Under the pieces are notes generated by a model. The model saw only the letters and a program-made list of their open reading frames with translations. It did not search any database and was not told where the DNA came from. A DNA stretch of 64,000 bases. Origin: a bacterium (GTDB lineage: Bacteria; AUK180). Positions 1,951 to 29,072 of this stretch are shown piece by piece. Location of the stretch: assembly GCA_023144005.1 (NCBI GenBank), contig JAGLGN010000006.1, positions 65,841-129,840 on the forward strand. Reading direction: 5' to 3'. Position 1 is the stretch's first letter. Each line of letters starts with the position of its first letter. The translations under genes were made by a program, and so were the position numbers.

Positions 1951-1954
1951 TCCC

Positions 1955-1983: not shown

Positions 1984-1988
1984 AAACC

Positions 1989-6071: not shown

Positions 6072-6202
6072 GATAGGGCACACTATCCCTTGGCCCGCGA
6101 AGGCGGCAAGGTCCCTTCAAAATCAGGGATCCTTTTATTCAAAAGTCTCCTTTCAGAATAGGAGATCGGAGGTTTAATCCTTCAGCCTATTTTATCGTTT
6201 CC

Positions 6203-6234
6203 TTTCCGGGGAGAGCCGATGCTCTCCCCGGAAA
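6203..6234. terminator. 14-bp perfect stem with 4-base loop between convergent genes
   Basis: TTTCCGGGGAGAGC (6203-6216) pairs perfectly with 6221-6234 around the loop CGAT. It lies between the stop codons of the cyclase gene (6071, plus) and the FG-GAP giant (6240, minus), so it can serve both strands. There is no clear T-run on the exit side in either direction. Termination is inferred from position and stability. Confidence 0.6.
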
Positions 6235-6239
6235 AAACA

Positions 6240-9200
6240 TCATGAGATTTCAATCAACAGCTGATCCAGCAATATCCTGATTTCATGGATATCCGTTGAT
6301 TCTACCTGCCTGACATTATTTATTGCCTTCAGACATTCCAGTATCGCTTTTTCCCTGTCTTCCGCTGTCGGGATCTTTTCAAGACACTTGATCGCATTGA
6401 AAATGAATTTCATTTCCTTTTCATCAGCATCAAGCTCATTCAGCATTTCAATAATATCCGAGTTCAAGGTTTCAGGATCATATGATACCGACTCGGTGAA
6501 CGCGAAGGGCTCCTCTTCCCACCAAATGCCGTTCGCCAGATAGGAGACCTCTGTAGTAAATATAAACTCATCACCTGTATCGGGCAGTCTCGCAAAGACA
6601 TAATACTTTCTGGTTTCCCCGGCAGTGATCAGCTCATTCCAATCGACGATATTCGATTCAATCTCACCGACAGGTATTACTTCTATTATCTCAGTTCCTT
6701 CCGGAAGTATCTCACTGATCTTCGTCTGAAGGTCGAAGACATTGGATTTCACGCTTATCCTGACCGTATTGTATCCACCGGAGATTACACTTTCTTCTTC
6801 CGGCTTGACGTAGTCAATTGCGGCGGCAAGGATATCTCCAGCATCTTCAAGAGAGCTGAATATATCAAAGGCAAAGTATACCGTCTTTCCTTCTCCATAA
6901 TTATTCCCGATGATGACGGGTGACGGCAGATGCGGCGATACTGTCACATAGCCGCTCTCAAAGGACCCAAGGGATTCCACTGTATAGGTCGTCCCTGTAG
7001 TTGTCAATACTCCTTCTTCGGTGATCGGTGAATTAACAAGATTAATGGTCAGGTTATATCCATCATAGACACCGCTGTAACGGATCCCGAGAACTTCAGG
7101 AACTACTCCTTCTCCCAGGAAATGATAATAATGAGAGGTGATAAGGCCCTTTCCCGAATAGACATGTTCTCTCAATTCTTCCGAGGTATGCCCTTCGAGA
7201 TTTTCCGCATTCCCGAGAATAATATATTCGTTATATGAACCGGACCTCATACCGGAAACAAATTCACCGCTTGACTCTACAATGTCATATGTAATGATCC
7301 CTCCCAGATTATCAAAGTATTCAGATAATTGTTCATGCTGGTCTTCAGAAACATTGCTGAAATTTTCCCATATAAGGATACTTGGAATAACTGAAATATC
7401 CGCACTGATATCAAAAGCCTCCACAAGCTCAAACTGCAATGAGTTGATTGATTCAACATTTCCGGTATTATCAATACTTCTATATTCAATGGTATGCAGA
7501 CCATAACCAAATGAGGCCAGATTCATAGATTCTGTATAATGGCGCCACTCGTCATCGTCAAACCGGTATTGCGTATACTGAACTCCGCTCAATGCATCAT
7601 CAGCATGAAGTATGATCATACTTCCTTTTATAACCTCATTCAAACTGCTTATCGGATTAACTTCTATCCGAGTCTGTGCAGAAGTGAGGTCAATTGTGAA
7701 TGAGGTGAAGTGCTCGTCTGAGTATTCCCCTCCAAGATCTCGAGCATACAGATAAACCTCATATACCCCATCGTCTGTAACGGGTTCATTATCGAGGTCT
7801 TTTCCATTCCAGGTAAAAGTAATTGGAACCTCGTTTGGAGCATTTGCCTCACTCCAATAAATCTCATCTCCATCTCGATTGAAAATACCCAAATGAACAA
7901 TCGATTCCTCTGACACCGAAACACTCACTGCCAGGCTATCATTTACGCCGTCTCCATTTGGACTTAAATATTCCGGGGCAATTGAAATTGAAAGGATTTC
8001 CGGCGGACCGGGCTCATTGTGATGATAGCAAAGTGCATAATATGAAAGATGGAGCATCTCGATTGTAATCTGATTGCTGTCGTAATCCCTTGTAGTGAGA
8101 AGTTCGTCCGGCTGTGCTATAACCCATTCCGAATTCTCTTCATCGTAAGTGTAAGCCTGATAATTCGCTTCATCATACCCGAGAATAGTCAAATCATCGT
8201 AATTAAAGGCTATCTCTATATTATCTTTGAAATAATTGATCCCCGATCTTGAACTGATCTCGTATACATCTCCTATCACCATCCCAGATATTTCCGAGTA
8301 CTCAGGCACTGAAGAAACATTGTCAACACTTGTTATCTCAATGTACTCCATTCCCTGGTATAGGTCGTCACTCTCAATCTCAACTTCAACAAGACCATCA
8401 CTACTTACAATATCTCCCGGGGCATTGTAGTATTCCGGATCACATGGATCTTCCCAAATCATATATCGAATCTTAATATCTGTTATATCGTTGGCTTCGT
8501 CATAATCAGAATACACGAGGTGGCCCTGGTCACTCCACTCATAAAAAGACTTAGCACCATTATTTTCTCTTTTAGTCTTGAATTCAAATAACATTCCCTG
8601 ATCCATTCCCGTATAATCCATGTAGAAGATTGCCTTCCGAATATAATCATTTGCCGGATCGTCATCCAATGTTCGAATGAAGCTGATCTTATCACCATTT
8701 CCAGTCCATTGTATAGAATTTTCATCTATACTGTTGTCAGTAAAATATGTTAATTGAACAGGTGGATGAAAATTATCTGTATTGTAGGGCTGAATATATC
8801 CTTCATAAGGAATATTCCTTTTAATTAACCAAATGTTCCAAAAACCTCCTGCACTAGACAAATATATAATTTTAGATCCATCAGGAGAGAATTCTGGATT
8901 TTTCTCCATTGCAGAATCATTTGTAAGCCATATTCGTCTTTCAATGAAGTCTTCATCATGGACAAAGACGAGATCTTTCCTTCCACGAGTTTCAGGATCA
9001 TACCCACTTACTTCGAAAAATGAAGCTACCACTGCTTCTTCATATTGTTCTCCAGGAGCAATGCTACTCGTAGTATAAGAGAAACAAGATACCCAAATAG
9101 GAGGATCATACTCATCAAGAAATAATTTAAAATCAATTACTTTCGCTGGGTAAATCTGAGGAAAATCGTCAATAATCAAGGATTTCTGGTACAATTCACC

Positions 9201-12200
9201 GGTAATCCACACAGGTAGTCTAAAGTATCTATTCGCTATAGTATAGGACAATTTTCTCGAATTATTCGCTGATTTCAAGTGACTTATTATATCAATATGA
9301 TTTCCATCATAATACGTTTCTTCTCCACCAGAATGATGCACAGACTTCAGCTCATTTCTTTCTAATGCGCCCCAGTCAGTAAATGTTGACTCAATAAACG
9401 CAATACGAGGGATCCTGTATTTATCAACGAACCAAGTGGGTATATTTATAACTTCTTCCGAACTATATAAATTCCCCTTCTCCGATGTACTGATATCATG
9501 TCTAGTAAGTTCACTGCGGTTGTCAATATAGAAAAGATATTTGGAATCAGTCGGTTCCCAGATTGGTTCTGTTGAATGATTGCCAGGTAGATTGTTTGTA
9601 ATATTCTGCGGGTCACTCATGTGAGAAAGTTCCGTTTGAATCATATCTATCGTTACATTGGTTGTTGAATCCGTAAACCAATGAAGATTGTCATCTACCC
9701 AGACTTGAACTTGATATTCTGCATCACCTAAAAGATTTCCATCTGCATCTGTCCCATCCCAGGATATCACATATTCTCCATTATTCTCTACCGGAAATAA
9801 GACTTTTACAAGATTTGTATTTACAATCGGACCATTATATATTGCAATAACACATTCATAATACAATCCAGAACCATCATCATGTGCTGCAATCCTAAAT
9901 TCTACATTATCGTTGCACTCATCGTTATTTGGACTGAATATACTTGGACTTACATCAATCGAGTCAATGATAGGAGGTTGATCGTCAAGAAATATTTGTT
10001 GATGATGAACTTCCTCTGAATTTCCCACATTATCCTGGCTATAATATTCAATTGAATTTAAACCCGGAAGCATAAGTGTGTCATGAATTCTAAAGGGCGC
10101 GGTATAGATCTGCCAAGAGGAGTCGTTGATTCTAAAATATGTATTTTCTACTCCTGTCGCAAGCTCGCCTTCATCCCTTGCGGTTAAAGAGATCTGGGAA
10201 TAATTCACAACATATGATATTTCTTGTGTTTCGTAAACACTATACCTCAATGATATATCAGTAACTGGTGGCAATATATCTTGTTTTCCTTCTATCACCG
10301 CAACAGAAATCCCGCCTGCTTTACATTGGTCATAAGCATAGAATCTTCCTTCCAGTTCATCTTTTTGGAAAATCTTAATCCGATTGGCTGCAAGTGAACC
10401 GGCACCAGGTGAAGTTACGATCTCGTCATACCCGTCAAGGTCTATGTCACCGCAATCGTGAATACAGCCATTGGTATTAGGAGCAAGATATGCATTGAAA
10501 TTGTAAATAGGGACCGGATAAGCAGAATCCATATTAAGAATATCATATACTCGGATATTTGAATCATTGCCCTGCACCTCGCCTTTCGAGCAAACAATCT
10601 CTTCATAGTTTTTACCACTGATATTTCCACAACTCAGATATACTCCTGAGGTTACAATATCTCCAAATGCAAAGAAAGATTTTTCAGGAGAAGGATAATC
10701 TTCGTTGATATTCTCATAGCTAAATATGTTAATTCGTGAATCATTGCTCGCGCCCGGTCCCTTTCCTACGATTATTTCATCTACTCCATCATCATCAACA
10801 TCTCCACAGGAAACATTGGCTCCATGTTTTATATCATTTGAAAACGCAAAAAAGGATTTTGTTTCAGTAGCGTTATAACTAGAGTCTGTTTTCTCAATCT
10901 TGAATATTTTGACTTTGGCATAATAGTTCAAATGATGGCCCTTTCCCGCAATGATCTCATCCACTCCATCGCCGTCAATATCACCGGCAGCAATCGCGCA
11001 ACCATAATTATTTACTCCAAATGCACAAAAACTGATCAGTTTTTCCATTGTATAAAACGAGTAAATATCAATATAGCTGTCGTTGCCATCTTTTGATATT
11101 TTTGAAACAATGATCTCTTCCACGCCGTTTCCATCAATATCTCCAGTAGTGACATTCACTCCTTTTGTTGGAAATTCACTAACACCGAAAGTCTCGGGAA
11201 AGCCGTCTTTGGTAAATGATTTTATCATATCTCCTGATCTTGAAGCAGTTATAATATCGGTATTTTGCACCGGCAATTCAATATCGATATATGTATCGTA
11301 TGCTGATTCCGGCTTAGCCGGTTCAATATTGCATGAAGAATCTTTGGAAATACTCTTGAAGTAAATCCTATCGGTGTTTTTTGAAAATTGGGTCCAGGGG
11401 AAATTCGAACTTGTGCTATGGGTATATTCAGTCCCACATGCGTCAATATTCCAGATTTCCCAAGAACCGTCGTTAATTTTGTAATTAATGTTAAATCCCA
11501 AAGGATCGCCCGAATTATCCGCGCCACTCCATGAAACTGGGGTAAAAAGTTTCTTGTCAGTAATCGGTGAGGCCAAACTTACCACTGTAGAAAATGGGGG
11601 GGTTACATCTGGTTCGACCGGATTGTCTTTTCTCCCGTAAACGTACACAATATTGCTGAATTCACCACTCCAAAAGGAGTATTTTTTTGATACGGTAATT
11701 TTAAGTCTGTTCTCATTCTCTATTATCTCGAAACTGGCTTCGGTATTGCTGTTTTCTTCGTATTCAACACCGTCATAATCATAGATAGGGAATTCCGGAT
11801 CACCATCTATGTAGAATACTTTTTCAGAATCAAAGGCTGATAACTGTACTGCAATCAGTTCATTTCTGTTCCCGCCGTACGAATACTCAAATGGGTTTAT
11901 AGAGGGTCCCATGTTTTCACCGTCCTCGACTGTAACACTAAAATTGATCGCCTCAGGATCAAAAGGACTCCACATATCCTGAGAATTTATCCAGTAGATA
12001 AATGTTCTTACTGTACAGCCCGCGATTCCGCAACCGTAGTTTTTGAAGGACCCCGGTACAACTTCCGCCCAGCCATAGTCATTAATATAAGAATCGAATT
12101 CAAGACCGTTACTGCTTGCTGAAATTTCCGGCTGCGAAGAATGAGTGTACGGAAAAGTAACATCCATCCTGATCTCACGGCGATTCGCATGATAAAGGCC

Positions 12201-14528
12201 GAAAACATCATAAGCGAAAAGTATTGTCTCATCCGCATATTGTTCATATGTGTATGTGGTTGTTTCAATATTAAAATTGATTCTTCTTACAGTGCTATTG
12301 CCTGCTTTGTCAATTGCGTAAATATCTAAGACATGATGCCCTTCTGAAGCGATCTGTTCCCCTTCATTGTAAGGATTTCCGTCTAAAGTTATATACGAAA
12401 TGTCACTGTTAATGTTTTGATCGATCATGAATATTTGTGGGAGGATTATTGTATTCTGAAATATGTCTCCATCTTTAACACCGTAAACATCTATCAAAGG
12501 TGCAGTTTTATCGATAATTATTTTACTCTCGAATCTTGTAGTATTACCTGCAATATCGCTGGCATATACATTCAGATTGTAAATACCTTCATTATCAAGT
12601 TCAATGCTGTTTTCAGAAGGAATCCCATCAAGAAGTATCTCCGATTCTACCAGATGATCTTCTATAATATCAATATTTAAAGCAACATTTGTATTAAAAT
12701 ATCGTTTGCTGCCCGATGAAATGGAGCTGGCGCTATTTATTTCCGAAACTAATATTTGTGGAAATGTTTTATCAACATTTATCAGTATCTCATCTTCGGT
12801 GACATTGTCCGCACCATCGGTAACAACTAATTTGAGTTTGTATTCTCCGCCACTTGTTAAAGTGGTCGTGTCCCAGACAACAAGTAAAGAATCGGTAACT
12901 GAAATATTTTGCTGCTTATTAATAATTGTGGTGTACTCCGTAGAATCCTTTTTCGCATATGATATTTCATAACTACGGATATGATCATCTGTCGCTGTAC
13001 CCTTGATGTTACATGATGCGCCAACCCATTGATCTGCAACCGGATATGTGATCTCCGCTATAGGAGGAACTCTATCAAGAAGAACATTTACAATGTGTCG
13101 TTTAAATAAACCGTCACCATCCATACCTTTCAAAATAAATCGATATCCGCCATCAGTTTCTAAAGCAGGATCCCAATTGTAGACAACCTCTGAAGAAACG
13201 GATTGATCGGAAACATATATATCCCCACTCATATTGAAAACGGGATCATCCAGTGGCAGCAGAGTTCTCTCGCCTGTAGTTAAGTTCTTCTTCATCAGGA
13301 TCCAGTAAATATCGGATGAAGAAATCGGAGAAATAGAGGCGGTTACATCAATAAGCTGACTACTGGCAATCCCCGTCCCGTCAGTAGGATATTCCAATAC
13401 TGCTTGGGGTACGCTCCCTGTTTCTTCAAGTTCAATATGAGCAAACTGTCCCCATATCTCAGTATAGAATTCACCGTCAATATTTGAAAAAATACTTATC
13501 TCACTTCCTCTGGCACATGTTAGAATGTCCTCAGTTTCTTCTCCTCTGAAATATCCCGTATTTGGGATAAGAAAATCTGAACTTCTTTGCTGGAATACTT
13601 CAATGACCGTTCCTGTGAAATCAATTATTGTAGAATGTCCTCCCAAACCGGTGATGAGAATTTCTGGGTTTCCCGTATTGTCATAATTAAAAATACGAAT
13701 TCCCATAACTGTGGTAGGTATAGTGAATAGGGTCCTATTGAATGATATCGCTCCATCATACGTAAGAATATCGACATTACCATTGACATCGCCTAATAGA
13801 ATATCCGCAATTCCGTCACCATCAAGATCTCCAGCAGCAGGAGGACAGACCAGAATATTTCCGCTATCGAAAGTGATCCAACCGGCAGTATAATTCCATA
13901 CAGCAACACTACCGTCTCCACAATTTGCGAATATTTCAGAGATACCGTCCTCGTCAATATCCTTGAGGGTAAGATATGTATATTCTCCTGAAGTGACAGT
14001 ATGGGTTTCGATTTCTACCCATGAAGTTCCATCGTGATCATCCCACACATACACATTGCCATCTGAAGTCCCTGCAACAAAATCAAGATCTCCATCGCCG
14101 TCCATATCGGACGCAATTGGCGTATCACTGATAGGTACATTAATGTCTCTTGGCCAGCCGGCCACATCGCTGCCACTTGAATGGAATGCGTGCATCTTGA
14201 TATTGCCTACAGAATCCTTTGAACAGACAAGTATCTCAGAAGCCCTGTCATTATCAAGATCGACGAGAATCGGAGAAGTATAGAAGACTCTTCCGGTCAG
14301 GGCTTTCGGCCAGCCCGTAACAACCTTTCGATACCGATTCCAGACGGTGAGCCGTCCGTCATCTGAAACAGTCGCGATCTCACGGCCTGTCGCCAGAAAG
14401 ATTCCTTCTATTCCGTCAATATCTCCGAGTGCAGAAGAATCGAGTGAGACAGATGGAATCAGAATAAAGGCAATGACAAGTGATAATAAACCAAATATCT
14501 TTGAATCCAATTTTATTTTATTGTACAT
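6240..14528 (-). CDS. Giant exported FG-GAP / Ig-like / FlgD-like surface protein
   Basis: 2762 residues. The ATG at 14528 is chosen because AAGGGG (14535-14540) lies 6 bases upstream; an upstream in-frame start would run into the preceding gene. A hydrophobic segment at about 10-26 acts as a signal peptide. FG-GAP/VCBS-type calcium loops such as DMDGDGDLD (about 140) and DLDGDGIAD (about 238) are followed by Ig-like modules. A second FG-GAP block sits at about 1125-1375. Two FlgD-Ig-like modules begin with SPNND (about 1531) and SPNGDGVND (about 2189), and a TolB-like WSPDG-type repeat (EFSPDGSKI) lies at about 1880. The tail (about 2680-2762) is helical and charged, unlike a sorting domain. 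A structural, adhesive or matrix role outside the cell is likely; I see no catalytic site. It is the last gene of the run starting with the RHS gene. Confidence 0.8.
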   Translation of the reverse strand: MYNKIKLDSKIFGLLSLVIAFILIPSVSLDSSALGDIDGIEGIFLATGREIATVSDDGRLTVWNRYRKVVTGWPKALTGRVFYTSPILVDLDNDRASEILVCSKDSVGNIKMHAFHSSGSDVAGWPRDINVPISDTPIASDMDGDGDLDFVAGTSDGNVYVWDDHDGTSWVEIETHTVTSGEYTYLTLKDIDEDGISEIFANCGDGSVAVWNYTAGWITFDSGNILVCPPAAGDLDGDGIADILLGDVNGNVDILTYDGAISFNRTLFTIPTTVMGIRIFNYDNTGNPEILITGLGGHSTIIDFTGTVIEVFQQRSSDFLIPNTGYFRGEETEDILTCARGSEISIFSNIDGEFYTEIWGQFAHIELEETGSVPQAVLEYPTDGTGIASSQLIDVTASISPISSSDIYWILMKKNLTTGERTLLPLDDPVFNMSGDIYVSDQSVSSEVVYNWDPALETDGGYRFILKGMDGDGLFKRHIVNVLLDRVPPIAEITYPVADQWVGASCNIKGTATDDHIRSYEISYAKKDSTEYTTIINKQQNISVTDSLLVVWDTTTLTSGGEYKLKLVVTDGADNVTEDEILINVDKTFPQILVSEINSASSISSGSKRYFNTNVALNIDIIEDHLVESEILLDGIPSENSIELDNEGIYNLNVYASDIAGNTTRFESKIIIDKTAPLIDVYGVKDGDIFQNTIILPQIFMIDQNINSDISYITLDGNPYNEGEQIASEGHHVLDIYAIDKAGNSTVRRINFNIETTTYTYEQYADETILFAYDVFGLYHANRREIRMDVTFPYTHSSQPEISASSNGLEFDSYINDYGWAEVVPGSFKNYGCGIAGCTVRTFIYWINSQDMWSPFDPEAINFSVTVEDGENMGPSINPFEYSYGGNRNELIAVQLSAFDSEKVFYIDGDPEFPIYDYDGVEYEENSNTEASFEIIENENRLKITVSKKYSFWSGEFSNIVYVYGRKDNPVEPDVTPPFSTVVSLASPITDKKLFTPVSWSGADNSGDPLGFNINYKINDGSWEIWNIDACGTEYTHSTSSNFPWTQFSKNTDRIYFKSISKDSSCNIEPAKPESAYDTYIDIELPVQNTDIITASRSGDMIKSFTKDGFPETFGVSEFPTKGVNVTTGDIDGNGVEEIIVSKISKDGNDSYIDIYSFYTMEKLISFCAFGVNNYGCAIAAGDIDGDGVDEIIAGKGHHLNYYAKVKIFKIEKTDSSYNATETKSFFAFSNDIKHGANVSCGDVDDDGVDEIIVGKGPGASNDSRINIFSYENINEDYPSPEKSFFAFGDIVTSGVYLSCGNISGKNYEEIVCSKGEVQGNDSNIRVYDILNMDSAYPVPIYNFNAYLAPNTNGCIHDCGDIDLDGYDEIVTSPGAGSLAANRIKIFQKDELEGRFYAYDQCKAGGISVAVIEGKQDILPPVTDISLRYSVYETQEISYVVNYSQISLTARDEGELATGVENTYFRINDSSWQIYTAPFRIHDTLMLPGLNSIEYYSQDNVGNSEEVHHQQIFLDDQPPIIDSIDVSPSIFSPNNDECNDNVEFRIAAHDDGSGLYYECVIAIYNGPIVNTNLVKVLFPVENNGEYVISWDGTDADGNLLGDAEYQVQVWVDDNLHWFTDSTTNVTIDMIQTELSHMSDPQNITNNLPGNHSTEPIWEPTDSKYLFYIDNRSELTRHDISTSEKGNLYSSEEVINIPTWFVDKYRIPRIAFIESTFTDWGALERNELKSVHHSGGEETYYDGNHIDIISHLKSANNSRKLSYTIANRYFRLPVWITGELYQKSLIIDDFPQIYPAKVIDFKLFLDEYDPPIWVSCFSYTTSSIAPGEQYEEAVVASFFEVSGYDPETRGRKDLVFVHDEDFIERRIWLTNDSAMEKNPEFSPDGSKIIYLSSAGGFWNIWLIKRNIPYEGYIQPYNTDNFHPPVQLTYFTDNSIDENSIQWTGNGDKISFIRTLDDDPANDYIRKAIFYMDYTGMDQGMLFEFKTKRENNGAKSFYEWSDQGHLVYSDYDEANDITDIKIRYMIWEDPCDPEYYNAPGDIVSSDGLVEVEIESDDLYQGMEYIEITSVDNVSSVPEYSEISGMVIGDVYEISSRSGINYFKDNIEIAFNYDDLTILGYDEANYQAYTYDEENSEWVIAQPDELLTTRDYDSNQITIEMLHLSYYALCYHHNEPGPPEILSISIAPEYLSPNGDGVNDSLAVSVSVSEESIVHLGIFNRDGDEIYWSEANAPNEVPITFTWNGKDLDNEPVTDDGVYEVYLYARDLGGEYSDEHFTSFTIDLTSAQTRIEVNPISSLNEVIKGSMIILHADDALSGVQYTQYRFDDDEWRHYTESMNLASFGYGLHTIEYRSIDNTGNVESINSLQFELVEAFDISADISVIPSILIWENFSNVSEDQHEQLSEYFDNLGGIITYDIVESSGEFVSGMRSGSYNEYIILGNAENLEGHTSEELREHVYSGKGLITSHYYHFLGEGVVPEVLGIRYSGVYDGYNLTINLVNSPITEEGVLTTTGTTYTVESLGSFESGYVTVSPHLPSPVIIGNNYGEGKTVYFAFDIFSSLEDAGDILAAAIDYVKPEEESVISGGYNTVRISVKSNVFDLQTKISEILPEGTEIIEVIPVGEIESNIVDWNELITAGETRKYYVFARLPDTGDEFIFTTEVSYLANGIWWEEEPFAFTESVSYDPETLNSDIIEMLNELDADEKEMKFIFNAIKCLEKIPTAEDREKAILECLKAINNVRQVESTDIHEIRILLDQLLIEIS

Positions 14529-14574
14529 ATTCAACCCCTTATTATTCCTCCTTTTCTGAGAAAATATATTGATC

Positions 14575-15531
14575 TTACTCTTCATGCTTTCCTCCATACT
14601 TTTTAAGTAGTTTGATTATCTTGTCAAATTCATTCTGTCGCCTTATATCGCCTTCAAGATCCGTTCGCTCTGCAATAGCAATATCCAATGGTGTTTGACC
14701 TTTTTCATCTTTTATATTCGGATCAGCACCCCTTTTTAAGAGAATTTCACATGCCTCGTAGTGTCTTCTAAATACTGAATTAAAAAGAGGGGTCCAAGTT
14801 GTCTCAGGAAATCCTCCGGAAATTTTAGCGCCGCTGTCCAATAAAAGTGTAATTGCAGTTAATTGATTCCTTTGAGCAGCCCCGTTCAGTGGTGTCATTC
14901 CGTGTTGATCGTTGATTTCCGTATCCGCTCCTTTTTCAAGCAGTAATTTTACAATTTCATTATATCCCTGTGAAGAAGCTTTGTGTAGCGCAGTGCTTTT
15001 TGTGAATATTGCTTTATTTACATCTTCAGTTTCAATAAATTTCTTCACTGCATCTATATCATTTCTGAATACGGCATAATACAATTCATCTGTTTCGATA
15101 ACTTCATTTTTAATAGTATCTACAATAAATACCGATTGCCTTATTAGGGATTGACCAATGTATAATCGGTATATACCTTTTTCCTGGGTCTTTTCCATAT
15201 GACACCAGTCTTTAGGGTTATTTGACGTCCCAAATGCCCAGGCACCGGCGTCAGCATCGAAAAAATGGATCTCTAATTTCTTCTTTTTACCGTTCTGTTC
15301 GATATACAGATATGATCTGATATGTGCAAAAAGCATTTTCATTCCAAGTGTAGGACCGGAATCTATTGTGATTATTTCCAAATAATAATGCACTGGCCCT
15401 TCCTCGGTCTGAAATGTTTGTTTTTCATTTACCCATCTTCCTCTACATCCTGAAGAAGAAATCAGAATGATCAAAACAATACTTGGCAATATTACATCTT
15501 TCAGCAGCCAATCCCTACTACCAATCTTCAT
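14575..15531 (-). CDS. Ankyrin-repeat lipoprotein, candidate immunity protein for the RHS lipase
   Basis: 318 residues. The ATG at 15531 lies 1 base after the RHS stop codon, implying coupled translation; a longer reading frame upstream only overlaps the RHS gene. The N-terminus is hydrophobic and ends in a lipobox-like SSGC with the Cys at 29, so envelope anchoring is likely, although a Ser at the -3 position is suboptimal. A unique region of about 130 residues follows, with no family I recognise. About four ankyrin repeats then run from about residue 165 to the end, with typical phrases such as TALHKASSQGY, LLLEKGAD and GADPNIKDEKGQTPLDIA. Known lipase effectors of type VI systems are often paired with envelope immunity lipoproteins, so neutralising the upstream lipase domain is the favoured guess. 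It could instead be a general scaffold. The segment shares the AT-rich composition of the RHS gene. Confidence 0.8.
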   Translation of the reverse strand: MKIGSRDWLLKDVILPSIVLIILISSSGCRGRWVNEKQTFQTEEGPVHYYLEIITIDSGPTLGMKMLFAHIRSYLYIEQNGKKKKLEIHFFDADAGAWAFGTSNNPKDWCHMEKTQEKGIYRLYIGQSLIRQSVFIVDTIKNEVIETDELYYAVFRNDIDAVKKFIETEDVNKAIFTKSTALHKASSQGYNEIVKLLLEKGADTEINDQHGMTPLNGAAQRNQLTAITLLLDSGAKISGGFPETTWTPLFNSVFRRHYEACEILLKRGADPNIKDEKGQTPLDIAIAERTDLEGDIRRQNEFDKIIKLLKKYGGKHEE

Positions 15532-15532
15532 A

Positions 15533-18500
15533 CTATTTTCCGGTCCTTTTTTTAAGCATCTGGTCCCAAACATGTTTCGAAAGCATATTCGAATGATGGC
15601 TTTCGCCAAATAATAATGCTTTGGTAGCAACTTCAATATCTTTTGCCTTATCATCTGTTCTTCCCGTAAAGAAAAATGAAAAAGCCACAGCATTCATGTA
15701 GCAGTTAGTGCCTAGAAATTCTGTAAGTATTGGCCCGCCGACTAATTGAACTCGATCTTTGTTGGAATAGACATTGTAGTAGTTGACAACATTACTCATA
15801 TCCATTTCGTAATCGACCCTTTGCGGGGTTGCGAAGGTAATAATAGTTTGTACTTCTTGTGAAAATGAGGGGGAGGCTTCCTTTACAATATTCCCTCCGT
15901 GGCTATGCGCAATTATATGTATTTTTTCATTTCCAATTATTGTATAGTTATCAATATATTCAAGCAAGGCCTTAGCGCCTGCGGTTCTTGCCTCTGGAGT
16001 ATTAGCTTCAGAAAGTGATGCGGGCCAATAAATTGGATGAACTGGATTGCCTTCGTCCCCAAGCGATCTCTGAATATAATTCATATACTCTTCATCCGGA
16101 GTCCAAGATTCATCACCAGACCCCGTACCCTTCACGGTAATTACCACATATCCGGCATAATCAATATTGGATAATGGATTATTACTTCCGTAAATATATC
16201 TGTTTAAAGATTGAGGATTGGCGGAGCTTCCAATGAGTTTATCCTTTGAAATAAATCTGCCTAATTCCGAAAAGTAATACCTTGCTCCGAAATTGTCGAG
16301 GCCCGTTTCAATGTCCCTTTCCTTTCCTGTAAATAAATGAGCCTCTTCTTCTCCTTGAGATAGGATCATATTTCCGAACGGATCCAATGTATTTTCAGTA
16401 ACTATCTCCCCAAGCTCATCGGTAATGATTATATTATTGCCTATATAATCCTGATGATAATATGCTATGCTTCCAGTACTATTTTCTGCCAATGTAATTC
16501 TATTTCCTGCGTATACAAAAGTATTTTGTCTTGCACCGGTTTTATCGTATTCTTCGATTACATTTCCTCCAATATCATAGATATAGATCGTTGTATTGCC
16601 AGGAGTTGTCTTAATTATTCTCCTTCCTTCGCCATCATAAGCAAATGATATTGAATATTCAATAATCCCGGGTTGATTCAAATCAGGCTCTCCCGGATTT
16701 TGGAAATCCACTCGTGTTAGCAAATTATCATAGTTATAACTAAATATTTTTTTCTTGACTTGACCACTTAGATTAGAGACCGTTTCCGAAATAATATTTC
16801 CATTGTTGTCATATACATAATTATGCGTACTTCCATTGCTACCTGAGTCAACGGTCATTGTGCTCAACTGATCTGAATTTCCCGTGTAATTGTAGCCAAT
16901 ATCTTCATAACTGGATTGCTGAGACACTCTATTTCCAGTAGAATCATAAGCGTAGCTTGCATCATTGGCGTCAGGATAATCCACCGATGTAAGCCTGATC
17001 AGTGGATCATAAGTATAATTAGTGGTACTCCCGTTAATTTTAGCCCTAGAAATAATACTACCGTTCTTATCATAGTTAAAATCGTCTTTATACATTAGTT
17101 GATTAATTCCTTTAAATATTTGATGAGAATCAATCAATCCTCGAGCGTTGTAAGTAAATTTCGTTGTTGAAATTGTTCCGTAATTAGAAGTTAATTCCTT
17201 TTGTGTAACATTCCCGAGGTTGTTATATTCATACCCAGCTATATCTTTATTATCGTACTTGATTGTATCCACCCATCCATGATCGTTCCTCTCATATAAT
17301 ACTTTCTTTCCCGATGGATAAGTTATTTCCTTTAATTCACCAGTCTCATAATATATATATGTTGAAATATACTCTGCATCGTTAATAGTATCCTTTTTCT
17401 GGACAAATCTCCCCATAGAATCATAGACATATTCTGTGCTACTCTCTATCTCTAGTGGGGATTCCGGCAAACTATAATATGATATTTTCTCCGTTAAATC
17501 ATTATCAAAATACTTAAAGGTTTTTTTCGTGTCATCTGGGTATTTTCTTTCTATTATCCGATTGAAGTCATCATAATCGAGATAAATTTTGTTATCATTC
17601 ATGTCTTGTGTATACTCTACGAGGCTAGATGATATATACGAGGTATGCTTAATCAGGCCTTCGCTGCATCCATCGTATCTATCGTATATATCATAATTTA
17701 TATCTGTAATGAATCCTCGAGCATTAGTAATCCGTGCTATATCATTAAACATTCCATTGTATTCGTACGTTGTGACTCCATTTGTACCTGGTTCATCACA
17801 ACGGATTATTCTTCCAATCTTATCCATAGTGAAAATCGTCTGATTACCTTCCGGATCCTTAACAATCTTTTTCATATTGCCATCATCATATGTAATTGAA
17901 GAATTTGTCCCATCAGGATAATTAATCTGAATCAATCGATATTGTTTATCATATACATACTCTGTTGTCTTTTTCTCAGCATCAGTAATTGTCTTGATCT
18001 TTCCACCAGGATGATATGAGTATGTCGTTGATAACCCAGCTTCGTCAATTTTGATGAGTCTTTTAATAGAATTATAATAATAGGTTGTGACTCGACCTGC
18101 GTCATCAACGGTTACTATATTATTAATATCATCCAACGTATATGAAATATTTGTTTTGTCCGGCCTTGTTTCATTCAACACTCTCCCAAGATTATCATAG
18201 TTGAATTCACTATAATTCCCAAGATTATCAAATTCTAGCTTGATTAGACCATTGGGATAATACTCATACTTATTAAAAAGTTCACCATTCCTACGTACTT
18301 CCGTAAGATTTCCTTCAGCACTGTACGAAAGAGAATGTACAAGATCTTCATTCAACTCAAATTTCTCGGTCACAAGACCCTTGCTATTGTATGAAAATCT
18401 TGTGTCGGAAATTTGTGCAAGATATCGTCTCTCTATATTTCCCCTAATATTTCCCTCATCATAGTATTCTGTATTTATTTCGATATTATTTCCATTCAAT

Positions 18501-19984
18501 GTTTCACTTTGTCTAGTTTGCAGGCCGATTATGTACAGCCCTGTTGGGGTCTCCGAATTGAACTCATCTATATTTAAATAAGTATAAGTGTAAATATATG
18601 ACAACGGATTTGTATATAAAGTTATATTACCGTAAGCATCATATTCATATGATTCAAGATAATCAATTTCTTGATCATCTTCTGGAGACTTTCGAGTTCT
18701 TGTTGCTTGTTCAAGATTTAGTTTCTCTTTATCAACCCAATCCTGATGAGGAGGTCCATCAATAACCCAGTCATTTACAGTAACAACACCGGGTTGCTCA
18801 CTTCTCACCATTTTGAATGTATAAATAAATTCTCCAGCAGCTTCAGTGTTATTAATATAGAATTTTTCAAACCAAAATTTGCTCAAATATCCGTTTGGGT
18901 CGGTTACTTCCGTATAATGAAGGTATATTCTACCCCAATAAGGATCTGCACATGCTTCACCTTCATCATATGTATTTTTCACTAGATCAAATCTATATGT
19001 AGATACTTCATCTGAATTTTCTGCACTTTTTAGAGTTTTTGTAAGCTGCAATCCTTGAAGAAATTCAGAAGTACAAATACTGCCGTTCAATTTTTCCTCG
19101 TTTTCAATTGTATCAAATGACAGGTAGTCATATTTAACAATAGCACCAGATGAATATGTAATTTCCGTAAGCTTCCATTGGAAATCATTGTAAATATCTG
19201 TATCATAGAGCTCATAGGAGTACTTTGTTTCCCGGCCATTTGGATTAACGACTTTTGTTAATAACGAATTATCGTCATATTCATATGAAAAAGATATTTC
19301 CACCTCTTCATGATTCTTATATTTAATTCTACTGATCAAACCCTTATCGGCATCGAAATATTCAAATGTGTAGTCATATCTCCCCGCTGAATCAAATACC
19401 GATACTATCTGAAATGGTGGCAAGGGACTTCTAATTAATCGAATATTATTATCATTCTTGTCCAGAATCTTTATTGGAAGTCCATGAAAATTGAAGGTAA
19501 TCTTCGTCCCATTTGGTTTAGCTAATACCCATGTATTAGTTGTATCTTCATATATCAGTTTATCGCGGACTCCTGGCTCCAATGGGATTCCCTCATCTGA
19601 CGGGTGTCCCGTCATGAAATAGGTTTGTCGAGAACCATCTCCATAGATTACTATGGCTTTATTACTTGCGCTGGGATAATCTGTTTCAATACGATTAATT
19701 CCATTTACACTGAACGACCATTCGCAATTCTGATATCGCAAATTGCTATTATATGTTCTAGTAATAATTAATGGGATTCCAACTCCAGGTGCTGAAACAT
19801 CTGTGTGTCGAATAATAATATTACCGTTAAACAGATTAATATCCTCTTCCGTACGATCGCTGGCAAATGCCTGCAATGGAGAATAACCAAGTCCATTTAC
19901 ACCCGGTTCAGTCGGCTCTGCAACTGAATAGCAATTAAGCCCGATTATTAGAAGTAATAATACAATTGAAAATTTAGTTTTCAT
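15533..19984 (-). CDS. RHS/YD-repeat protein with C-terminal lipase-like alpha/beta-hydrolase domain
   Basis: 1483 residues with an N-terminal signal peptide (hydrophobic to about residue 21). A DUF6531-like N-terminal stretch (NLFNGNIII...PLIITRTYNS) is followed by many YD repeats, then the RHS core end (LFTGKERDIETGLDNFGARY, ISKDKLIG, NRYIYGSNNPLSNID). The usual DPxG boundary is degenerate, reading DYAG. The last 204 residues (from about 1280) look like a lipase: an early KGTGSG turn, the nucleophile elbow AHSHGG with S1361, a candidate acid D1410 and candidate His 1463/1464. RHS shells enclose or display C-terminal toxins, so this is a predicted lipase effector or an exported lipase. No type VI, type VII or TcB/TcC genes are in the window, so the delivery route is unknown. 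The start is supported by the GA-rich stretch GGGAGAGAGGA abutting the ATG. The gene is visibly AT-richer than its upstream neighbour. Confidence 0.85.
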   Translation of the reverse strand: MKTKFSIVLLLLIIGLNCYSVAEPTEPGVNGLGYSPLQAFASDRTEEDINLFNGNIIIRHTDVSAPGVGIPLIITRTYNSNLRYQNCEWSFSVNGINRIETDYPSASNKAIVIYGDGSRQTYFMTGHPSDEGIPLEPGVRDKLIYEDTTNTWVLAKPNGTKITFNFHGLPIKILDKNDNNIRLIRSPLPPFQIVSVFDSAGRYDYTFEYFDADKGLISRIKYKNHEEVEISFSYEYDDNSLLTKVVNPNGRETKYSYELYDTDIYNDFQWKLTEITYSSGAIVKYDYLSFDTIENEEKLNGSICTSEFLQGLQLTKTLKSAENSDEVSTYRFDLVKNTYDEGEACADPYWGRIYLHYTEVTDPNGYLSKFWFEKFYINNTEAAGEFIYTFKMVRSEQPGVVTVNDWVIDGPPHQDWVDKEKLNLEQATRTRKSPEDDQEIDYLESYEYDAYGNITLYTNPLSYIYTYTYLNIDEFNSETPTGLYIIGLQTRQSETLNGNNIEINTEYYDEGNIRGNIERRYLAQISDTRFSYNSKGLVTEKFELNEDLVHSLSYSAEGNLTEVRRNGELFNKYEYYPNGLIKLEFDNLGNYSEFNYDNLGRVLNETRPDKTNISYTLDDINNIVTVDDAGRVTTYYYNSIKRLIKIDEAGLSTTYSYHPGGKIKTITDAEKKTTEYVYDKQYRLIQINYPDGTNSSITYDDGNMKKIVKDPEGNQTIFTMDKIGRIIRCDEPGTNGVTTYEYNGMFNDIARITNARGFITDINYDIYDRYDGCSEGLIKHTSYISSSLVEYTQDMNDNKIYLDYDDFNRIIERKYPDDTKKTFKYFDNDLTEKISYYSLPESPLEIESSTEYVYDSMGRFVQKKDTINDAEYISTYIYYETGELKEITYPSGKKVLYERNDHGWVDTIKYDNKDIAGYEYNNLGNVTQKELTSNYGTISTTKFTYNARGLIDSHQIFKGINQLMYKDDFNYDKNGSIISRAKINGSTTNYTYDPLIRLTSVDYPDANDASYAYDSTGNRVSQQSSYEDIGYNYTGNSDQLSTMTVDSGSNGSTHNYVYDNNGNIISETVSNLSGQVKKKIFSYNYDNLLTRVDFQNPGEPDLNQPGIIEYSISFAYDGEGRRIIKTTPGNTTIYIYDIGGNVIEEYDKTGARQNTFVYAGNRITLAENSTGSIAYYHQDYIGNNIIITDELGEIVTENTLDPFGNMILSQGEEEAHLFTGKERDIETGLDNFGARYYFSELGRFISKDKLIGSSANPQSLNRYIYGSNNPLSNIDYAGYVVITVKGTGSGDESWTPDEEYMNYIQRSLGDEGNPVHPIYWPASLSEANTPEARTAGAKALLEYIDNYTIIGNEKIHIIAHSHGGNIVKEASPSFSQEVQTIITFATPQRVDYEMDMSNVVNYYNVYSNKDRVQLVGGPILTEFLGTNCYMNAVAFSFFFTGRTDDKAKDIEVATKALLFGESHHSNMLSKHVWDQMLKKRTGK

Positions 19985-20015
19985 TCCTCTCTCCCAATTT
20001 ATCTACATATGCTAT

Positions 20016-20045
20016 ATTATACACTTAATCGTTATTTAAAATCAA
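20016..20045 (-). promoter_or_regulatory. Promoter of the RHS-ankyrin-FG-GAP run
   Basis: Minus-strand TTGATT (20040-20045), an 18-bp spacer and consensus TATAAT (20016-20021). The start codon is at 19984, leaving a leader of about 25 bases with a purine-rich ribosome site. Unlike the leaderless promoters in this window, it allows normal Shine-Dalgarno initiation. Confidence 0.6.
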
Positions 20046-20143
20046 TAGAATCTCGTCTCTTTTTGGAAATTCTCAAGTTAATCAGAATCATGCAGAAACC
20101 CGTTACTCTTTTGATGTAAAATTGATTGAAAACAATAATTTCA

Positions 20144-20163
20144 GGGAGGGTCGAAACCCTCCC
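20144..20163 (-). terminator. 8-bp stem with UUCG loop after the lamin-tail/PLD giant
   Basis: GGGAGGGT and ACCCTCCC pair perfectly. On the minus strand the loop is TTCG, the stable UUCG tetraloop class. It begins 10 bases past the stop codon at 20174. The sequence after it is only moderately T-rich (ATTATTGTTTT). It separates the giant from the RHS promoter. Confidence 0.65.
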
Positions 20164-20173
20164 CGTTTATACA

Positions 20174-23100
20174 TTATCTGATGATAGCGAATTTATAGTA
20201 ATCCGATCCGGCTTCCGTCTCTATGACCAGTATATAAACACCCGATGCGAGCCTGTTGTCGTCATCATTGGTGGTATCCCAGTCGATCGTAGGATTGCCG
20301 GGATCTGAAATATCGACATCCGCGGTTTCAAATTCTCTGACCTTCTCTCCCGCGACATTGTAAATAGCCATGGTATCAAAGAGCGCAGGAATGTGATCGA
20401 AGAATATCTGCTCTGTAGTCACGGCAGGATTAGGATAGATCCTGACATCTTCAAAGACAAATGCCTTGCTCTCAACATAGCCGTACAAGCCGTATGTGGA
20501 GAAGTGATTCGTCTGAATGGTCAATGTATTCGCGTCAACATCCACTTCACCGCCGATGAGCTCCCATTGTGCGGGAGACAGCGTCGAATTGTAATACCAG
20601 ACCTTGAGATTGCCTTCGTACACAGTGCTACCGTCAACATAGCCGTCCTGATCCGCATCCGCATATGCGATGACCATCGTAACGGGCTCGTCAAATGTAA
20701 TTCCGGCGTCATCCGCGTAGAACTCTCTGACCTCACCGGTCTCGACCATCTTGTCATCTGTTACCGCAGGGACAAAATCAGGAGGTGATACCGAAAGTGA
20801 AGTATTGTCCTGAAGCGCATCCGCGGGAACATGTACCTGAGTAAAGGAATTGTCAAAGAGGATACCTCCTGACGGGCCTACCTCGACCTGTGTCTCAATG
20901 GGCAAGATCGAAAGCGTGTATGTGTCCCCTACCTTTGTAATATAGGTTATCTTATCACCGCCGGCGGGTGCCCAGCTCATGAACGCTTCATTGAAGGAAT
21001 TGTTCCCGATGATCTGAGGAATAAAATTAACATCGGCATCATCGGTAGCCAGCACAGGATCATCCCAATTTGTCATATAGGTATTGAAATTGACACCTGT
21101 TAACGAATCGGTAACTGCTGTACCGGATGAAACATCATTGAATATAGCATTGTCAAATAGGTCGTTCTCATCCTGCACATAGGAAATTATACCGCCATTC
21201 TCATTGTTTCCAAGTGACCAGGAAGGTGACCATTTGGGAAGAGTATTATATGCGGCGGAAGCATTCCCCGGAGCATGAGTGACAAGTGTCATTCTAGCAT
21301 CTCCAAGCACGGTAACCATATTGGACGGGCTGCCCGTTGCTTCACCGATTGCGGTATTAATGATCTCTTCCACATCGTTAAGAATGTATATCTGAGTAGA
21401 ATCATCTGTCCTGGATTCGTAAACGAAAGCCACTTTCAGCTCGTCCGCGTCCGGATAACCGGCCGCCGGTCCCCACCACCATTTCGGCTGGAGACATCTC
21501 GATGCTGTGGCAGAATATTCGTCGGAAAGATGCGTCAGTTTGATAACAGATAGATCCTGATTATCCGCATCGATCGGGAGCGCGCCAAGATCTATCGCAT
21601 AAAGGTCGCCACCGATGGTGACCACCAGACGATCTGTCGAGTCCGGCTGCTGCGCGGCGGGACAATAATCAGGGTCATACCATCCATGCCATGTATCCGT
21701 TGTCAATTCAACTGGAGAGCCGGTGCCATCGTCAAGTCGCCTGAAAAGCCGGGAATGGTCTTCTGCGCTGTTATATGTCGCATAGTAAATATAACCGTCC
21801 GTGCCCCATGCGATCTGGCTGAAGTATAATACATCCTCAAGATTTGTGGTCAATTGCACAGGGGAATTCGATGTATTGGAAACATCAAGCGTGTACACAT
21901 TACAGACACCGTTTGAATCAGAAACATAAGCCACTTCTGTGCCGTCAGGTGACCACACAGGGAAGAGATCGTATCTTCCGCCTGTAACCGTGGTCGCATC
22001 GAAGTTATTAACCTCATTCACGGCGATATTGATCCCGGATTCATAAGGAACCATAAATTTAGCGGTGAACGGAGCGACTATTGTAGTTCCAACTCCAAGG
22101 CCGTCCAGTATCGTTTCAGATACCGCTATCGTATATGTTTCACCGGGAATGAGATCCAGTCCCGGAATAACGCGGAGCACTCTGTTGTCGGTAAGGGCAT
22201 AGAAAGAATCAACGCCGGGATGAGGAGCACCGCTGTCCTTTGTCAGGGAGTATGCGGTCGTATCGCCCAGGGTATAACTGTCGAATGGGGCTGTGAATTC
22301 AACATTGATCTCTTTATATTTATCAGATGCTGTGGTATGTACCGAATACGCTTTTTTCACCGTAAGCGGCGGATATATCGAGACATCTATCGTATGCACA
22401 GCGGATCCACTCAAAATAGAAGGATCATCAACAACCGTTACTCTGAGAGTTCTCGGTACCTGTCCGGTCGTCGGCTCATAGTCGATCAATCTTACCGTGC
22501 CGTCGCTGCCCACAAGGGCGCCGGTAACGGATACATCGTTGCCGCCGTCCACATTCGTGGCGCCGGTAAGCGTTGTTGTGTCAATATCTTCAGAGTTATC
22601 CGCTACAAAATCATCGATCGTAAGTGTAATATCCAAAGTGGCATTGGGATCACCCTCAGGCGCTTGATTGCCGTATTCATCGACAAGCCGTATGGTGAAG
22701 GTCGCGGAATCTCCTACCAGTATACCATTGGAGAACGGGCCTTCAACCTCAATATGATCTCCCGCAAGAGCAACAAGGTTTACCTCGGGTGAATCATCGT
22801 ATGGATAGACAATGTCGCTTCCGGAGAATTTTGTTCCGAATGGGAAATCGTTACCGGATGCCTTCGTACCCACCGTAATGTCATTTCCCGTTCCATATGT
22901 CAGGACCATTGTTTCATTCTGTGACATCGAAACGATCGGAATACTGATATGATTCCCCGAAATAGAGAATGACCCTATTACCGCGTCTTCGCTGGCAGAA
23001 ATCGATATAAATGAGGTATCGGGTGCTGTCCAGCCGTCCGCAACGGGGAGAATATTGATAGATACAACGCCATCTGAAACAGGGCATTGAGGTACAAATC

Positions 23101-26100
23101 TGAATTGCCATTTCGTGCCGGAATCCAGTATATCATGAGAAGATGTTAAGGTATATGCAAAACCGGCGATCGTATCGCTGACCTGCATAATTCCCGTACC
23201 GTCATAATCCAGAACATTGGCGGCACCCGGAGAAAGAGTAGTGGTCCTCGCCCAATCATATAGATTATCAGAATCCGAGGCAAGTGATATTCTTACCAAA
23301 GAATCAGAGTAATTGTATAAAGAACTGTTGGAACAGTCTGATTCCTGCGGAGAAGCACCTTCGATCAGCCATTGGCCTTCAACTACAAGAGTCGGAACAT
23401 CCCCCGGGATATCCGTACCGACACCGTCATCATTTGCCCAGACCGCACAATCATAATAAACCGCTCCGTTCATCAAAGCCGCTTGGTCATCCGTATCGGT
23501 CAAGGGCGTATCATCGACATAAAGGTCAACAAATCCGTTGCCGTTCGTATCTCCGGTACCGTCTGTCTCATCCGGTTCTCCTACGATCCAGTGGACTACA
23601 ACATAGTCGCCCGTATGAACGGTAACAGCTGAACCAGCAAAAGAGGTATCCGTACCATCCATGTCCGTGATCAAAAAGGAAGAAATGTCGATACCGGCAC
23701 CGCCGACATCTTTTATGTATAATTCAACCCAGTCATGAGTTCCCCAATAATCGGAACTTGTAGAGCTGGATTCAAAATTCACTTCTGAGATCAATATTAT
23801 TCCGTCAAGAACCGTAACGACGGGATTATTGGCAACTTCATAAGGGAATTCGCCGACTACCTTTGAACCTGAATAGTATATGTATCCGCCGAGAGCAGCT
23901 GGAGAAGTAACGCTTACGAATTCAAGCGCCGAAGTAGCGCCGGGCTCAAGGTAATCACCTGTAAATCCATCGACCCAGATTGCAGTACCGCCGCCGGCCG
24001 CCGCACCGTAAGTGCCGACAGTATGCAAACCGCCATCGGTTCCAAGAAGGTTTATCGTCCAGCCGTTGGGATCGCCGAAGGCCGCAGGGACAACTGTATA
24101 ATACATCTCGATCGGCTCTGTTGCGGTCACAAATTCCAGCGTAAAGTCATAAGAAGTACTTGGCCGGACCTTATTCGGGGTCACGAACATCTTTCCGCTT
24201 GGTACAGGAGTTGTATTGGGCATACCCGGGGTCGGGCTGCCGTTGGCAATAACACTCCAATCAACTTTATCGTTTGTGTCTGTGGAATCACCGTCTCTGG
24301 CAATACTTCCGTTCGTACCGTCATTATTGATGCATACTGCGTCATTCTCGCGGTCATCAGCGGACACGGAACCGACAATACAAGAGCCGGGGGCATAATC
24401 ATACCACTCGCCGTTTTCCTGAGCGGCGTCAAAGAATGTCGTGGTTGCGGACCAATTCCCGGGGCAGCTCGTCCAGTCAGCCCAGGCGACAAAGTCAAGG
24501 ATGTGATCGCCGGAATCTTTTAATGTCAGATACGAATCACCGCTGCTGAGAGCGAGCCCATTATCATAGATACGGGCAACATTGTCAACGACCTGTGCTT
24601 CCGAATCATTTGAACCGGTCGTCCCTTCGATGAGAAGGTACTGACCTGTTTTTATTATCACACTCGGAAGTGTAACCTCCGCACCGTTCTCCTCATAAAT
24701 TATATATCCGTCCAGATCAATACCGTTACCACCATTTGTATCGTCAAGGCAGTAGATTTCGATCCAGTCCCATTCCAATTTAATGCCTCTGAAATAATTA
24801 ATACTGGTCGTGGAACCGTAATAGCAGACCTCATTTATTACAAGAAGCGGAAGGTTGGCATTTCCTGAGCCGGGAGTAGGCGAGCCCTCTATCAGCCAGT
24901 CCTCTATCTGATTATTGTCAAAACCATCGGACTTCCTGGCAAATGAATATAATTCTTTCGCAACAGGGTCCAAAAGATCTGAATTAAGGAAATCTGTTGT
25001 TTCGACAGTACCCAATACAGCATAGTCCTCCCATTGATTATTGTCGATAAGGATCGTGAAATCTGTCGTTTCGCCGGTTCTGAATGAGGCATCACCATGC
25101 TCCGCCCATCCGACCGCGTCAACAAATCTGTCCAGATTATCCTTTAGTACCACCTGCTCATCTGTCGCTATCATCTGACCGTTTTCAGCGCCGTTCACAT
25201 AAATGTCCCATTTCGTATCACCTTTGCCTGTACCATCCGTCTCGTCTGTTGAACTTAAGGGCGTTTCCCATGTAACAAGAAGCAGATCGCCGTCCGCAAG
25301 TGTGATATCCGGCAGCACCTTGATCTTATCATTCGGAGTATCGCTGTCGCTGAATCTTGTAAGATACCAGTTCTGTACATTTATTGGTCCGCCGGAAGCG
25401 CAATATATCTCTATCCAATCCTCTGTATTATCGCCTCTGAAGAAAACTTCATTAATAACAACAACACCCGCCCTAATATTTATAGCCGGCGTGGGTGAGA
25501 CCTCGGAAAGCTCTGGTGCATTTGGATTTGAATCCCAGTCAACCTTTGTAGTAAAGGCGGTGGGGCCGGCTGATGACGGTGAAGTGAAATTTGTGAATAC
25601 GAAATCCACAGATTCAGTACCGCCGGTACCGCCGGATATGATCTCCTCTGTCGAGGGACATATGAGTTTTACCCAGGTACCGCCCGTTTCGGCAGTAAAT
25701 GTGACATCGGTAACAAGATTGTAATAATGACCGTCATTTCTTTTTACGATGGTATTCGCCGAAGACGGCGCGGGAGACCATGTATCCGGAAACCATACAC
25801 TCACCTTGGTCATATTATCACCGGAGGTGCCGTTATGTGTTACGGTCAATGTAATTGTTTTCACTTCATTGGTCGAACATGTAAGCGGGACTATATCAGC
25901 ATCCGCCGGAGTAATATTCGCCGAAGGGCCATAACGCGCTCTGAATTCCTGATAGAATTCATTCGCTACATTGGCGTCATGTATAATGATCGTATTCTCA
26001 TCATTGTCGCCGGTAACATCGGTAGCGTTTGTCCAGTTAGTCGAACCCGTAATGACCACAGGGTCCGAGCGCACGCTGTCACAGTCGATTATCATATATT

Positions 26101-28813: not shown

Positions 28814-29043
28814 AAAGAACTCCTATTATATATATATTTATGGAATATAATAAGCCTTAATTAAGTGCAATTTCTGTACCATACGATATGTAGTTTTCCA
28901 TCCCCCGATATACTTGCTATCTCGTAGTTTTATGGTATTTACAATTTCCATTTTCTGGAATCCATTTCATTTTTCTGGTATTTTCAGAAATCCTTGCTAT
29001 TTCTTGTTATGTTCGCCCTTTTTCCTTATTTCAATAATATCTA

Positions 29044-29072
29044 TTGACTTTTTCTTGGCTTTTTGCTATAGT
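29044..29072 (+). promoter_or_regulatory. Promoter of perR-rubrerythrin, leaderless geometry
   Basis: TTGACT (29044-29049), a 17-bp spacer and TATAGT (29067-29072), then 5 bases to the ATG at 29078. I found no convincing PerR box. The remainder of the 264-bp gap back to 28813 is AT-rich, with no other structure I could define. Confidence 0.7.

What the first reader, a model, noticed from the sequence alone, without database searches (positions are those of the whole stretch)
14575..19984. Candidate RHS-lipase toxin with an ankyrin lipoprotein as immunity
The RHS protein ends in a 204-residue alpha/beta-hydrolase domain (AHSHGG elbow, candidate Asp and His). One base after its stop begins a lipobox-bearing ankyrin protein. 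Toxin-immunity order, coupled translation and envelope targeting match known lipase effector pairs. Unlike classic cytosolic Rhs toxins, this RHS protein carries its own signal peptide, so delivery may be contact-dependent at the surface. No known delivery system is encoded nearby.
Basis: inference. Interest (0 to 1): 0.68.

Follow-up and report, generated by a model that had tools for sequence, protein, structure and literature searches.

The report
Secreted RHS lipase toxin with ankyrin antidote
A bacterium of a little-studied candidate phylum carries a gene for a secreted, cage-like RHS protein tipped with a probable lipid-cutting enzyme, followed at once by the gene for a membrane-anchored ankyrin protein that most likely protects the cell from it; it is one of a family of swappable weapons in this lineage that all seem to act on the cell envelope.

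Summary
Window 15533-19984(-) encodes a 1483-aa RHS protein with a signal peptide. Its last 205 residues carry an alpha/beta-hydrolase signature (AHSHGG; candidate Ser1361, Asp1410, His1463/1464). One base after its stop starts an ankyrin protein with a lipobox. Toxin plus immunity is the best reading, and the surroundings now support it. The genome has three more secreted RHS proteins and its sister species many. They share shells (83-87% identical) but have unrelated tips (about 25%), different downstream genes and orphan tip arrays. All 33 genes downstream of a toxin tip encode exported or membrane proteins (31 by a hydrophobicity threshold, 2 by inspection; background 15 of 43). In the sister species the same site, with flanks 85-90% identical, holds a different pair: an fn3-DUF7689 protein plus a HEAT-repeat protein. 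The pair is thus replaced as a unit, RHS shell included. It overlaps the ankyrin gene here and lies upstream in 10 of 10 informative paralogous loci. T6SS VipA, PAAR and SpvB are absent from the genome. The nearest functional precedent is Enterobacter Tle6 lipase with its ankyrin lipoprotein Tli. Catalysis, neutralisation and export route remain inferred; the tip could not be modelled.

The parts
15533..19984 (-). RHS protein, 1483 aa, signal peptide at residues 1 to about 22, DUF6531 at 48-122, YD/RHS shell, Rhs core at 1201-1278
   Evidence: ORF and translation; PF05593, PF20148; TIGR03696
15533..16150 (-). C-terminal toxin tip, residues 1279-1483, alpha/beta-hydrolase-like; Ser1361 codon 15902-15904, Asp1410 codon 15755-15757, His1463/1464 codons 15593-15598
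   Evidence: Motif positions; weak but concordant alpha/beta-hydrolase profile hits; lipase hits in PDB, best E 0.0099; AlphaFold uninformative
14575..15531 (-). Ankyrin lipoprotein, 318 aa, candidate immunity protein; lipobox Cys29, predicted beta domain about residues 30-148, ankyrin repeats about 149-288
   Evidence: Start one base after the RHS stop, lipobox; ankyrin Pfam hits; coarse AlphaFold outline, pLDDT 62
6240..14597 (-). Giant companion, 2785 aa (probable start 14585), with FG-GAP, Ig-like/FlgD, CHU_C and PD40 domains; overlaps the end of the ankyrin gene, where a GGAGG precedes its start
   Evidence: Pfam; overlap and GGAGG; C-terminal family shared with the genes upstream of paralogous RHS genes
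8931..20155 (.). Segment without DNA similarity to the syntenic site of the sister species: N-terminal two thirds of the companion, ankyrin gene, RHS gene
   Evidence: blastn against contig G001:C132, flanks 85-90% identical
20142..20165 (-). Terminator-like hairpin after the upstream gene; the RHS operon begins beyond it
   Evidence: Pattern scan; consensus match only
20016..20045 (-). Promoter-like site ahead of the RHS gene (TTGATT-18-TATAAT)
   Evidence: Pattern scan, 10 of 12 matches; such sites are only slightly more common than in shuffles

Best explanation
This is a polymorphic-toxin operon for competition between bacteria. The RHS protein is exported by its signal peptide. Its YD-repeat shell should enclose the C-terminal alpha/beta-hydrolase tip, which most likely cleaves membrane lipids of neighbouring cells from the envelope side. 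The ankyrin protein, anchored as a lipoprotein, is the cognate immunity protein: it would sit in the producer's periplasm and bind the tip so that toxin from kin or self does no harm. Toxin and immunity genes are read together and move as a unit. The giant companion encoded behind them probably helps export or display the RHS protein. Shown: gene order, domains, export signals, tip polymorphism in sister loci, replacement of the pair at a syntenic site, exported or membrane nature of the downstream genes. Inferred: lipase activity, neutralisation, role of the companion, target.
For: Domains, signal peptide and adjacency. Hydrolase signature. Three more exported RHS genes in the genome, each with another tip and another exported partner, two loci with orphan tip-partner modules. 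Same-genus loci: shells 83-87% identical, tips about 25%, partners hardly alignable. 31 of 33 downstream genes with a hydrophobic segment against 15 of 43 in the background, Fisher 6e-8. Replacement of the pair as a unit at the same site in the sister species by fn3-DUF7689 plus HEAT. Precedent: lipase neutralised by an ankyrin lipoprotein.
Against: No relative of the tip was found anywhere beyond weak hits, so co-variation of this tip with this ankyrin gene cannot be tested. All hydrolase profile hits are below cut-off and the tip model failed. In the sister species the whole RHS gene, not only the tip, is replaced. No delivery route is shown.
Confidence: 0.78

Rival explanations
1. The RHS protein is a secreted or surface lipase used for nutrition or envelope remodelling, and the ankyrin lipoprotein is a folding helper or anchor rather than an antidote.
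For: Lipase-like tip and signal peptide. The ankyrin protein Tli of Enterobacter both activates and neutralises its lipase, so a helper role is possible in principle.
Against: Sister RHS loci carry many unrelated tips on the same shell, with orphan modules and different exported partners, as expected for toxins and not for a nutritional enzyme. At the syntenic site the pair is exchanged for an unrelated one.
Confidence: 0.12
2. The RHS protein is a toxin aimed at eukaryotic cells (protists or animals), and the ankyrin protein has another role.
For: RHS proteins also occur in toxins that act on animals (general knowledge).
Against: Exported or membrane partner genes after every tip point to self-protection in bacteria. 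SpvB was not found in this genome or its sister.
Confidence: 0.05
3. The tip is an alpha/beta hydrolase but not a lipase (for instance an esterase, thioesterase or peptidase), still neutralised by the ankyrin lipoprotein.
For: The profile hits spread over several alpha/beta-hydrolase families, among them cutinase and palmitoyl thioesterase.
Against: All PDB hits are lipases or plain alpha/beta hydrolases, and an envelope-anchored partner fits a membrane substrate.
Confidence: 0.25

Closest known systems
Tle6 phospholipase and Tli ankyrin lipoprotein (Enterobacter cloacae; PMC11470151, PMC10294624)
   Same: Lipase-type toxin encoded next to an ankyrin-repeat lipoprotein that protects the envelope.
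   Different: Tle6 is delivered by T6SS; here the toxin is the tip of an RHS protein with its own signal peptide, and VipA and PAAR are absent from the genome. No sequence relation of the tip to Tle6 was seen in the PDB search at E<=1. The ankyrin protein has an extra predicted N-terminal beta domain.
Sec-exported RHS polymorphic toxins with Imm-ank or HEAT immunity (PMC3482391)
   Same: Signal peptide, RHS repeats, variable tip, repeat-protein partner; all listed in that survey.
   Different: Membrane or export signals on all 33 downstream partners examined here, and a giant companion gene at the RHS loci.
TcdB/TcaC-type systems (SpvB, integrin-like beta-propeller and RHS)
   Same: Secreted RHS protein near a protein with FG-GAP beta-propeller repeats.
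   Different: No SpvB domain in this genome or its sister; the companion is a different Ig-rich protein.

Membership tests
RHS polymorphic toxin | YD/RHS repeats and Rhs-associated core ahead of the tip | tested here: met
   PF05593 1.2e-36; TIGR03696 7.4e-17 at residues 1201-1278
RHS polymorphic toxin | Variable C-terminal tip on a conserved shell | tested here: inconclusive
   Met for paralogous loci of the genus: shells 83-87%, tips about 25%. For the window shell itself no near-identical shell was found; the best match in the fetched relatives is about 28%.
RHS polymorphic toxin | Immunity gene directly downstream, differing with the tip | tested here: inconclusive
   Adjacent gene present; partners differ with the tips in sister loci and the pair is replaced as a unit in the sister species. 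Neutralisation not testable here.
alpha/beta-hydrolase superfamily (tip) | Profile match above curated cut-off | tested here: not met
   Best Abhydrolase_1 20.0 bits against a cut-off of 25.8
alpha/beta-hydrolase superfamily (tip) | Nucleophile elbow and Ser-Asp-His order | tested here: met
   AHSHGG with Ser1361, Asp1410, His1463/1464 in order; assembly in three dimensions not shown
T6SS Rhs effector | T6SS and PAAR genes in the genome | tested here: not met
   VipA and PAAR without a match in G000 and G001, controls positive
Tle6-Tli | Ankyrin-repeat immunity protein exported as a lipoprotein | tested here: met
   Ankyrin repeats, lipobox VLIILISSSGC, Omp85 present so the cell is diderm; lipidation itself not testable
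Tle6-Tli | T6SS-delivered lipase homologous to Tle6 | tested here: not met
   No T6SS VipA; PDB hits of the tip are other lipases and alpha/beta hydrolases
TcB/TcC (SpvB) system | SpvB domain protein | tested here: not met
   PF03534 absent from G000 and G001; control rang in one genome
Type IX secretion cargo | SprA translocon in the genome and sorting tail on the cargo | tested here: inconclusive
   No SprA_N hit, but no control genome rang either. Eighteen Por_Secre_tail-like matches in the genome; Pfam shows none on the RHS protein, ankyrin protein or companion (companion has an internal CHU_C).

The most novel reading that the evidence does not exclude
This lineage (probably Candidatus Mcinerneyibacteriota) has its own class of Sec-exported RHS weapons that act only on the envelope, each made with a dedicated giant Ig/beta-propeller companion serving as a new export or display platform, and with exported or membrane-bound immunity for every toxin.
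Probability: 0.35. Interest if true: 0.8.

Novelty: new variant of a known kind. Interest (0 to 1): 0.62.

Why it matters
It would extend RHS polymorphic toxins to an uncultured candidate phylum as an arsenal aimed at the envelope. It suggests that lipase toxins and ankyrin lipoprotein antidotes can be paired in a setting without T6SS, and it points to a giant companion family as a candidate new part of RHS export. The 25 other tips checked have no Pfam family above cut-off, so these loci are a source of new toxin domains.

Tried and rejected
AlphaFold of the tip alone: pLDDT 39, discarded, no fold search run. The ankyrin model (pLDDT 62) was used only for its coarse outline. Scans for tip homologues in genome contigs, viral contigs and plasmids found none. 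A search of 386 genomes gave only weak hits (E 0.004-0.01), not used. PADLOC hits of the ankyrin protein cover only its ankyrin-repeat part, so a phage-defence reading is rejected. NCBIfam Dot/Icm ankyrin hits are far below cut-off. In alignment A1 the first row, typed by hand, has two wrong residues near its N-terminus (LLDF for LASF); it was used only as a search query. The 33-pair exported-gene test uses a simple hydrophobicity threshold; the two genes below it (L055 6479-7762, L057 11707-12564) show signal peptides by eye and were counted as negatives in the Fisher test. The background genes were picked from nearby contigs of the same two genomes, not from whole genomes.

Full report
Observation. 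On the minus strand, window 15533-19984 encodes a 1483-residue RHS protein with a signal peptide, RHS repeats and DUF6531 and an Rhs core ending at residue 1278. The 205 residues after the core contain AHSHGG (Ser1361), Asp1410 in YSNKDRVQ and His1463/1464, the order of an alpha/beta-hydrolase triad. Of eight Pfam families listed for the tip at E<=1, seven are alpha/beta-hydrolases, the best at 6e-4, but all lie below their cut-offs; all PDB matches are lipases or alpha/beta hydrolases, best E 0.0099. An AlphaFold model of the tip without relatives failed (pLDDT 39), so the fold is supported by motif and weak profile hits only. One base after the RHS stop begins a 318-residue protein with a lipobox at Cys29, a predicted N-terminal beta domain (moderate model) and ankyrin repeats. 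Its end carries GGAGG ahead of a third gene, which overlaps it.

The genome. The window lies in a 2.67-Mb draft genome. Two contigs of its sister species (G001) have the same lengths as contigs of the named MAG RS_12_30 ZL285.bin.30, and a contig of a same-class relative (G005) has the same length (16306 bases) as a record named Candidatus Mcinerneyibacteriota, so the phylum is probably that one. Omp85 is present, so the cell has two membranes. VipA, PAAR and SpvB are absent from this genome and its sister. SprA gave no hit, but no control genome rang either. Eighteen Por_Secre_tail-like matches occur in the genome, one of them in the flanking gene 20174-28813, so a type IX-like route cannot be excluded.

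Sister loci. The genome holds three more RHS genes, all with signal peptides, each with a different tip and each followed by an exported or membrane protein; two of the loci also hold orphan RHS-tip genes with their own downstream partners. The sister species and class relatives hold many more, including arrays of orphan tips. Between loci with the same shell, shells are 83-87% identical, tips about 25%, and the downstream proteins hardly align. This is the hallmark of polymorphic toxins. Of 33 genes directly downstream of a tip, 31 have a hydrophobic segment against 15 of 43 background genes (Fisher 6e-8), and the two others show signal peptides by eye. The putative immunity proteins of this lineage thus sit in the envelope, which fits exported, envelope-acting toxins. 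One of the 33 pairs is the fn3-DUF7689 and HEAT pair described next.

The same site in the sister species. Window 20156-29053 and 6163-8930 match contig G001:C132 at 85% and 90% DNA identity, as do 1954-6072 and 750-1749; between 8931 and 20155 there is no DNA match. There the sister species has an 1832-residue fn3 protein ending in DUF7689, followed by a 410-residue HEAT-repeat protein with a signal peptide, and then the companion. The companion's C-terminal part (from about residue 1900) is 73-98% identical and the rest 16-60% where aligned. One border lies inside the companion gene, the other in a terminator-like hairpin after the upstream gene. So the RHS-ankyrin pair behaves as a unit that is exchanged for another exported enzyme-like protein with a solenoid-repeat partner.

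The companion. The gene 6240-14597 encodes a 2785-residue protein with FG-GAP, Ig-like, CHU_C/FlgD and PD40 domains. Its C-terminal region is shared with proteins encoded upstream of the RHS gene in 10 of 10 informative paralogous loci (L018, L019, L020, L051, L052, L055, L057, L060, L062, L063), in four of them with one small gene between; in the window it lies downstream instead. A scan of genome contigs found relatives almost only in this lineage, plus one unnamed MAG and one contig filed under Dependentiae. A role in export or display is inferred from this linkage alone.

Distribution of the pair. The tip was not found, beyond weak hits, in 98 and then 386 genomes sampled as relatives, nor in genome contigs, viral contigs or plasmids, and the ankyrin protein as such was not found in the six nearest relatives. 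The pair is therefore so far known from this genome only, which rules out a direct co-variation test.

Comparison with the known. Enterobacter Tle6 lipase is neutralised by the ankyrin lipoprotein Tli, and Tle6 effectors are reported to be invariably encoded with ankyrin-repeat immunity proteins (PMC11470151, PMC10294624). Ankyrin and HEAT proteins are listed as immunity proteins, and Sec-exported RHS toxins as a class (PMC3482391). The window pair works like these but is not T6SS cargo by the markers tested. I file it as an RHS polymorphic toxin in a new variant: lipase-like tip, ankyrin lipoprotein, envelope-anchored partners throughout the lineage and a giant companion.

Noticed in passing
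window 20174-28813(-): A 2879-aa exported protein with lamin-tail domains, a phospholipase D-like domain (PLDc_2) and a C-terminal sorting-tail-like domain, 87% identical in the sister species.
   Followed up: partly
L086 9859-16602: An fn3-DUF7689 exported protein plus a HEAT-repeat exported protein occupy the syntenic slot in the sister species; DUF7689 may be another toxin domain.
   Followed up: partly
L055 6029-6388(-): A fragment 76% identical over 85 residues to the C-terminal end of the window companion lies just downstream of another RHS-partner pair, perhaps a remnant of a past exchange.
   Followed up: no
L019 9763-10359, L019 11779-12420, L020 3725-4144, L057 6160-6531: Tips without a Pfam family but with enzyme-like motifs: NCAHYV (papain- or LRAT-like), HELGH (zinc protease-like), HCYGGC, NCQHW.
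   Followed up: partly
L057 7427-17236: An array of six orphan RHS tips, each followed by its own membrane or lipoprotein gene.
   Followed up: partly
L055 12872-13465, L062 1106-1711, L063 6409-7026: A small exported TPR (YfiO-like) protein is encoded between companion and RHS gene in three loci.
   Followed up: partly
L072: A companion-like protein on a contig filed under Dependentiae, followed by a type II/IV-pilus-like ATPase gene; possibly a misbinned contig.
   Followed up: no
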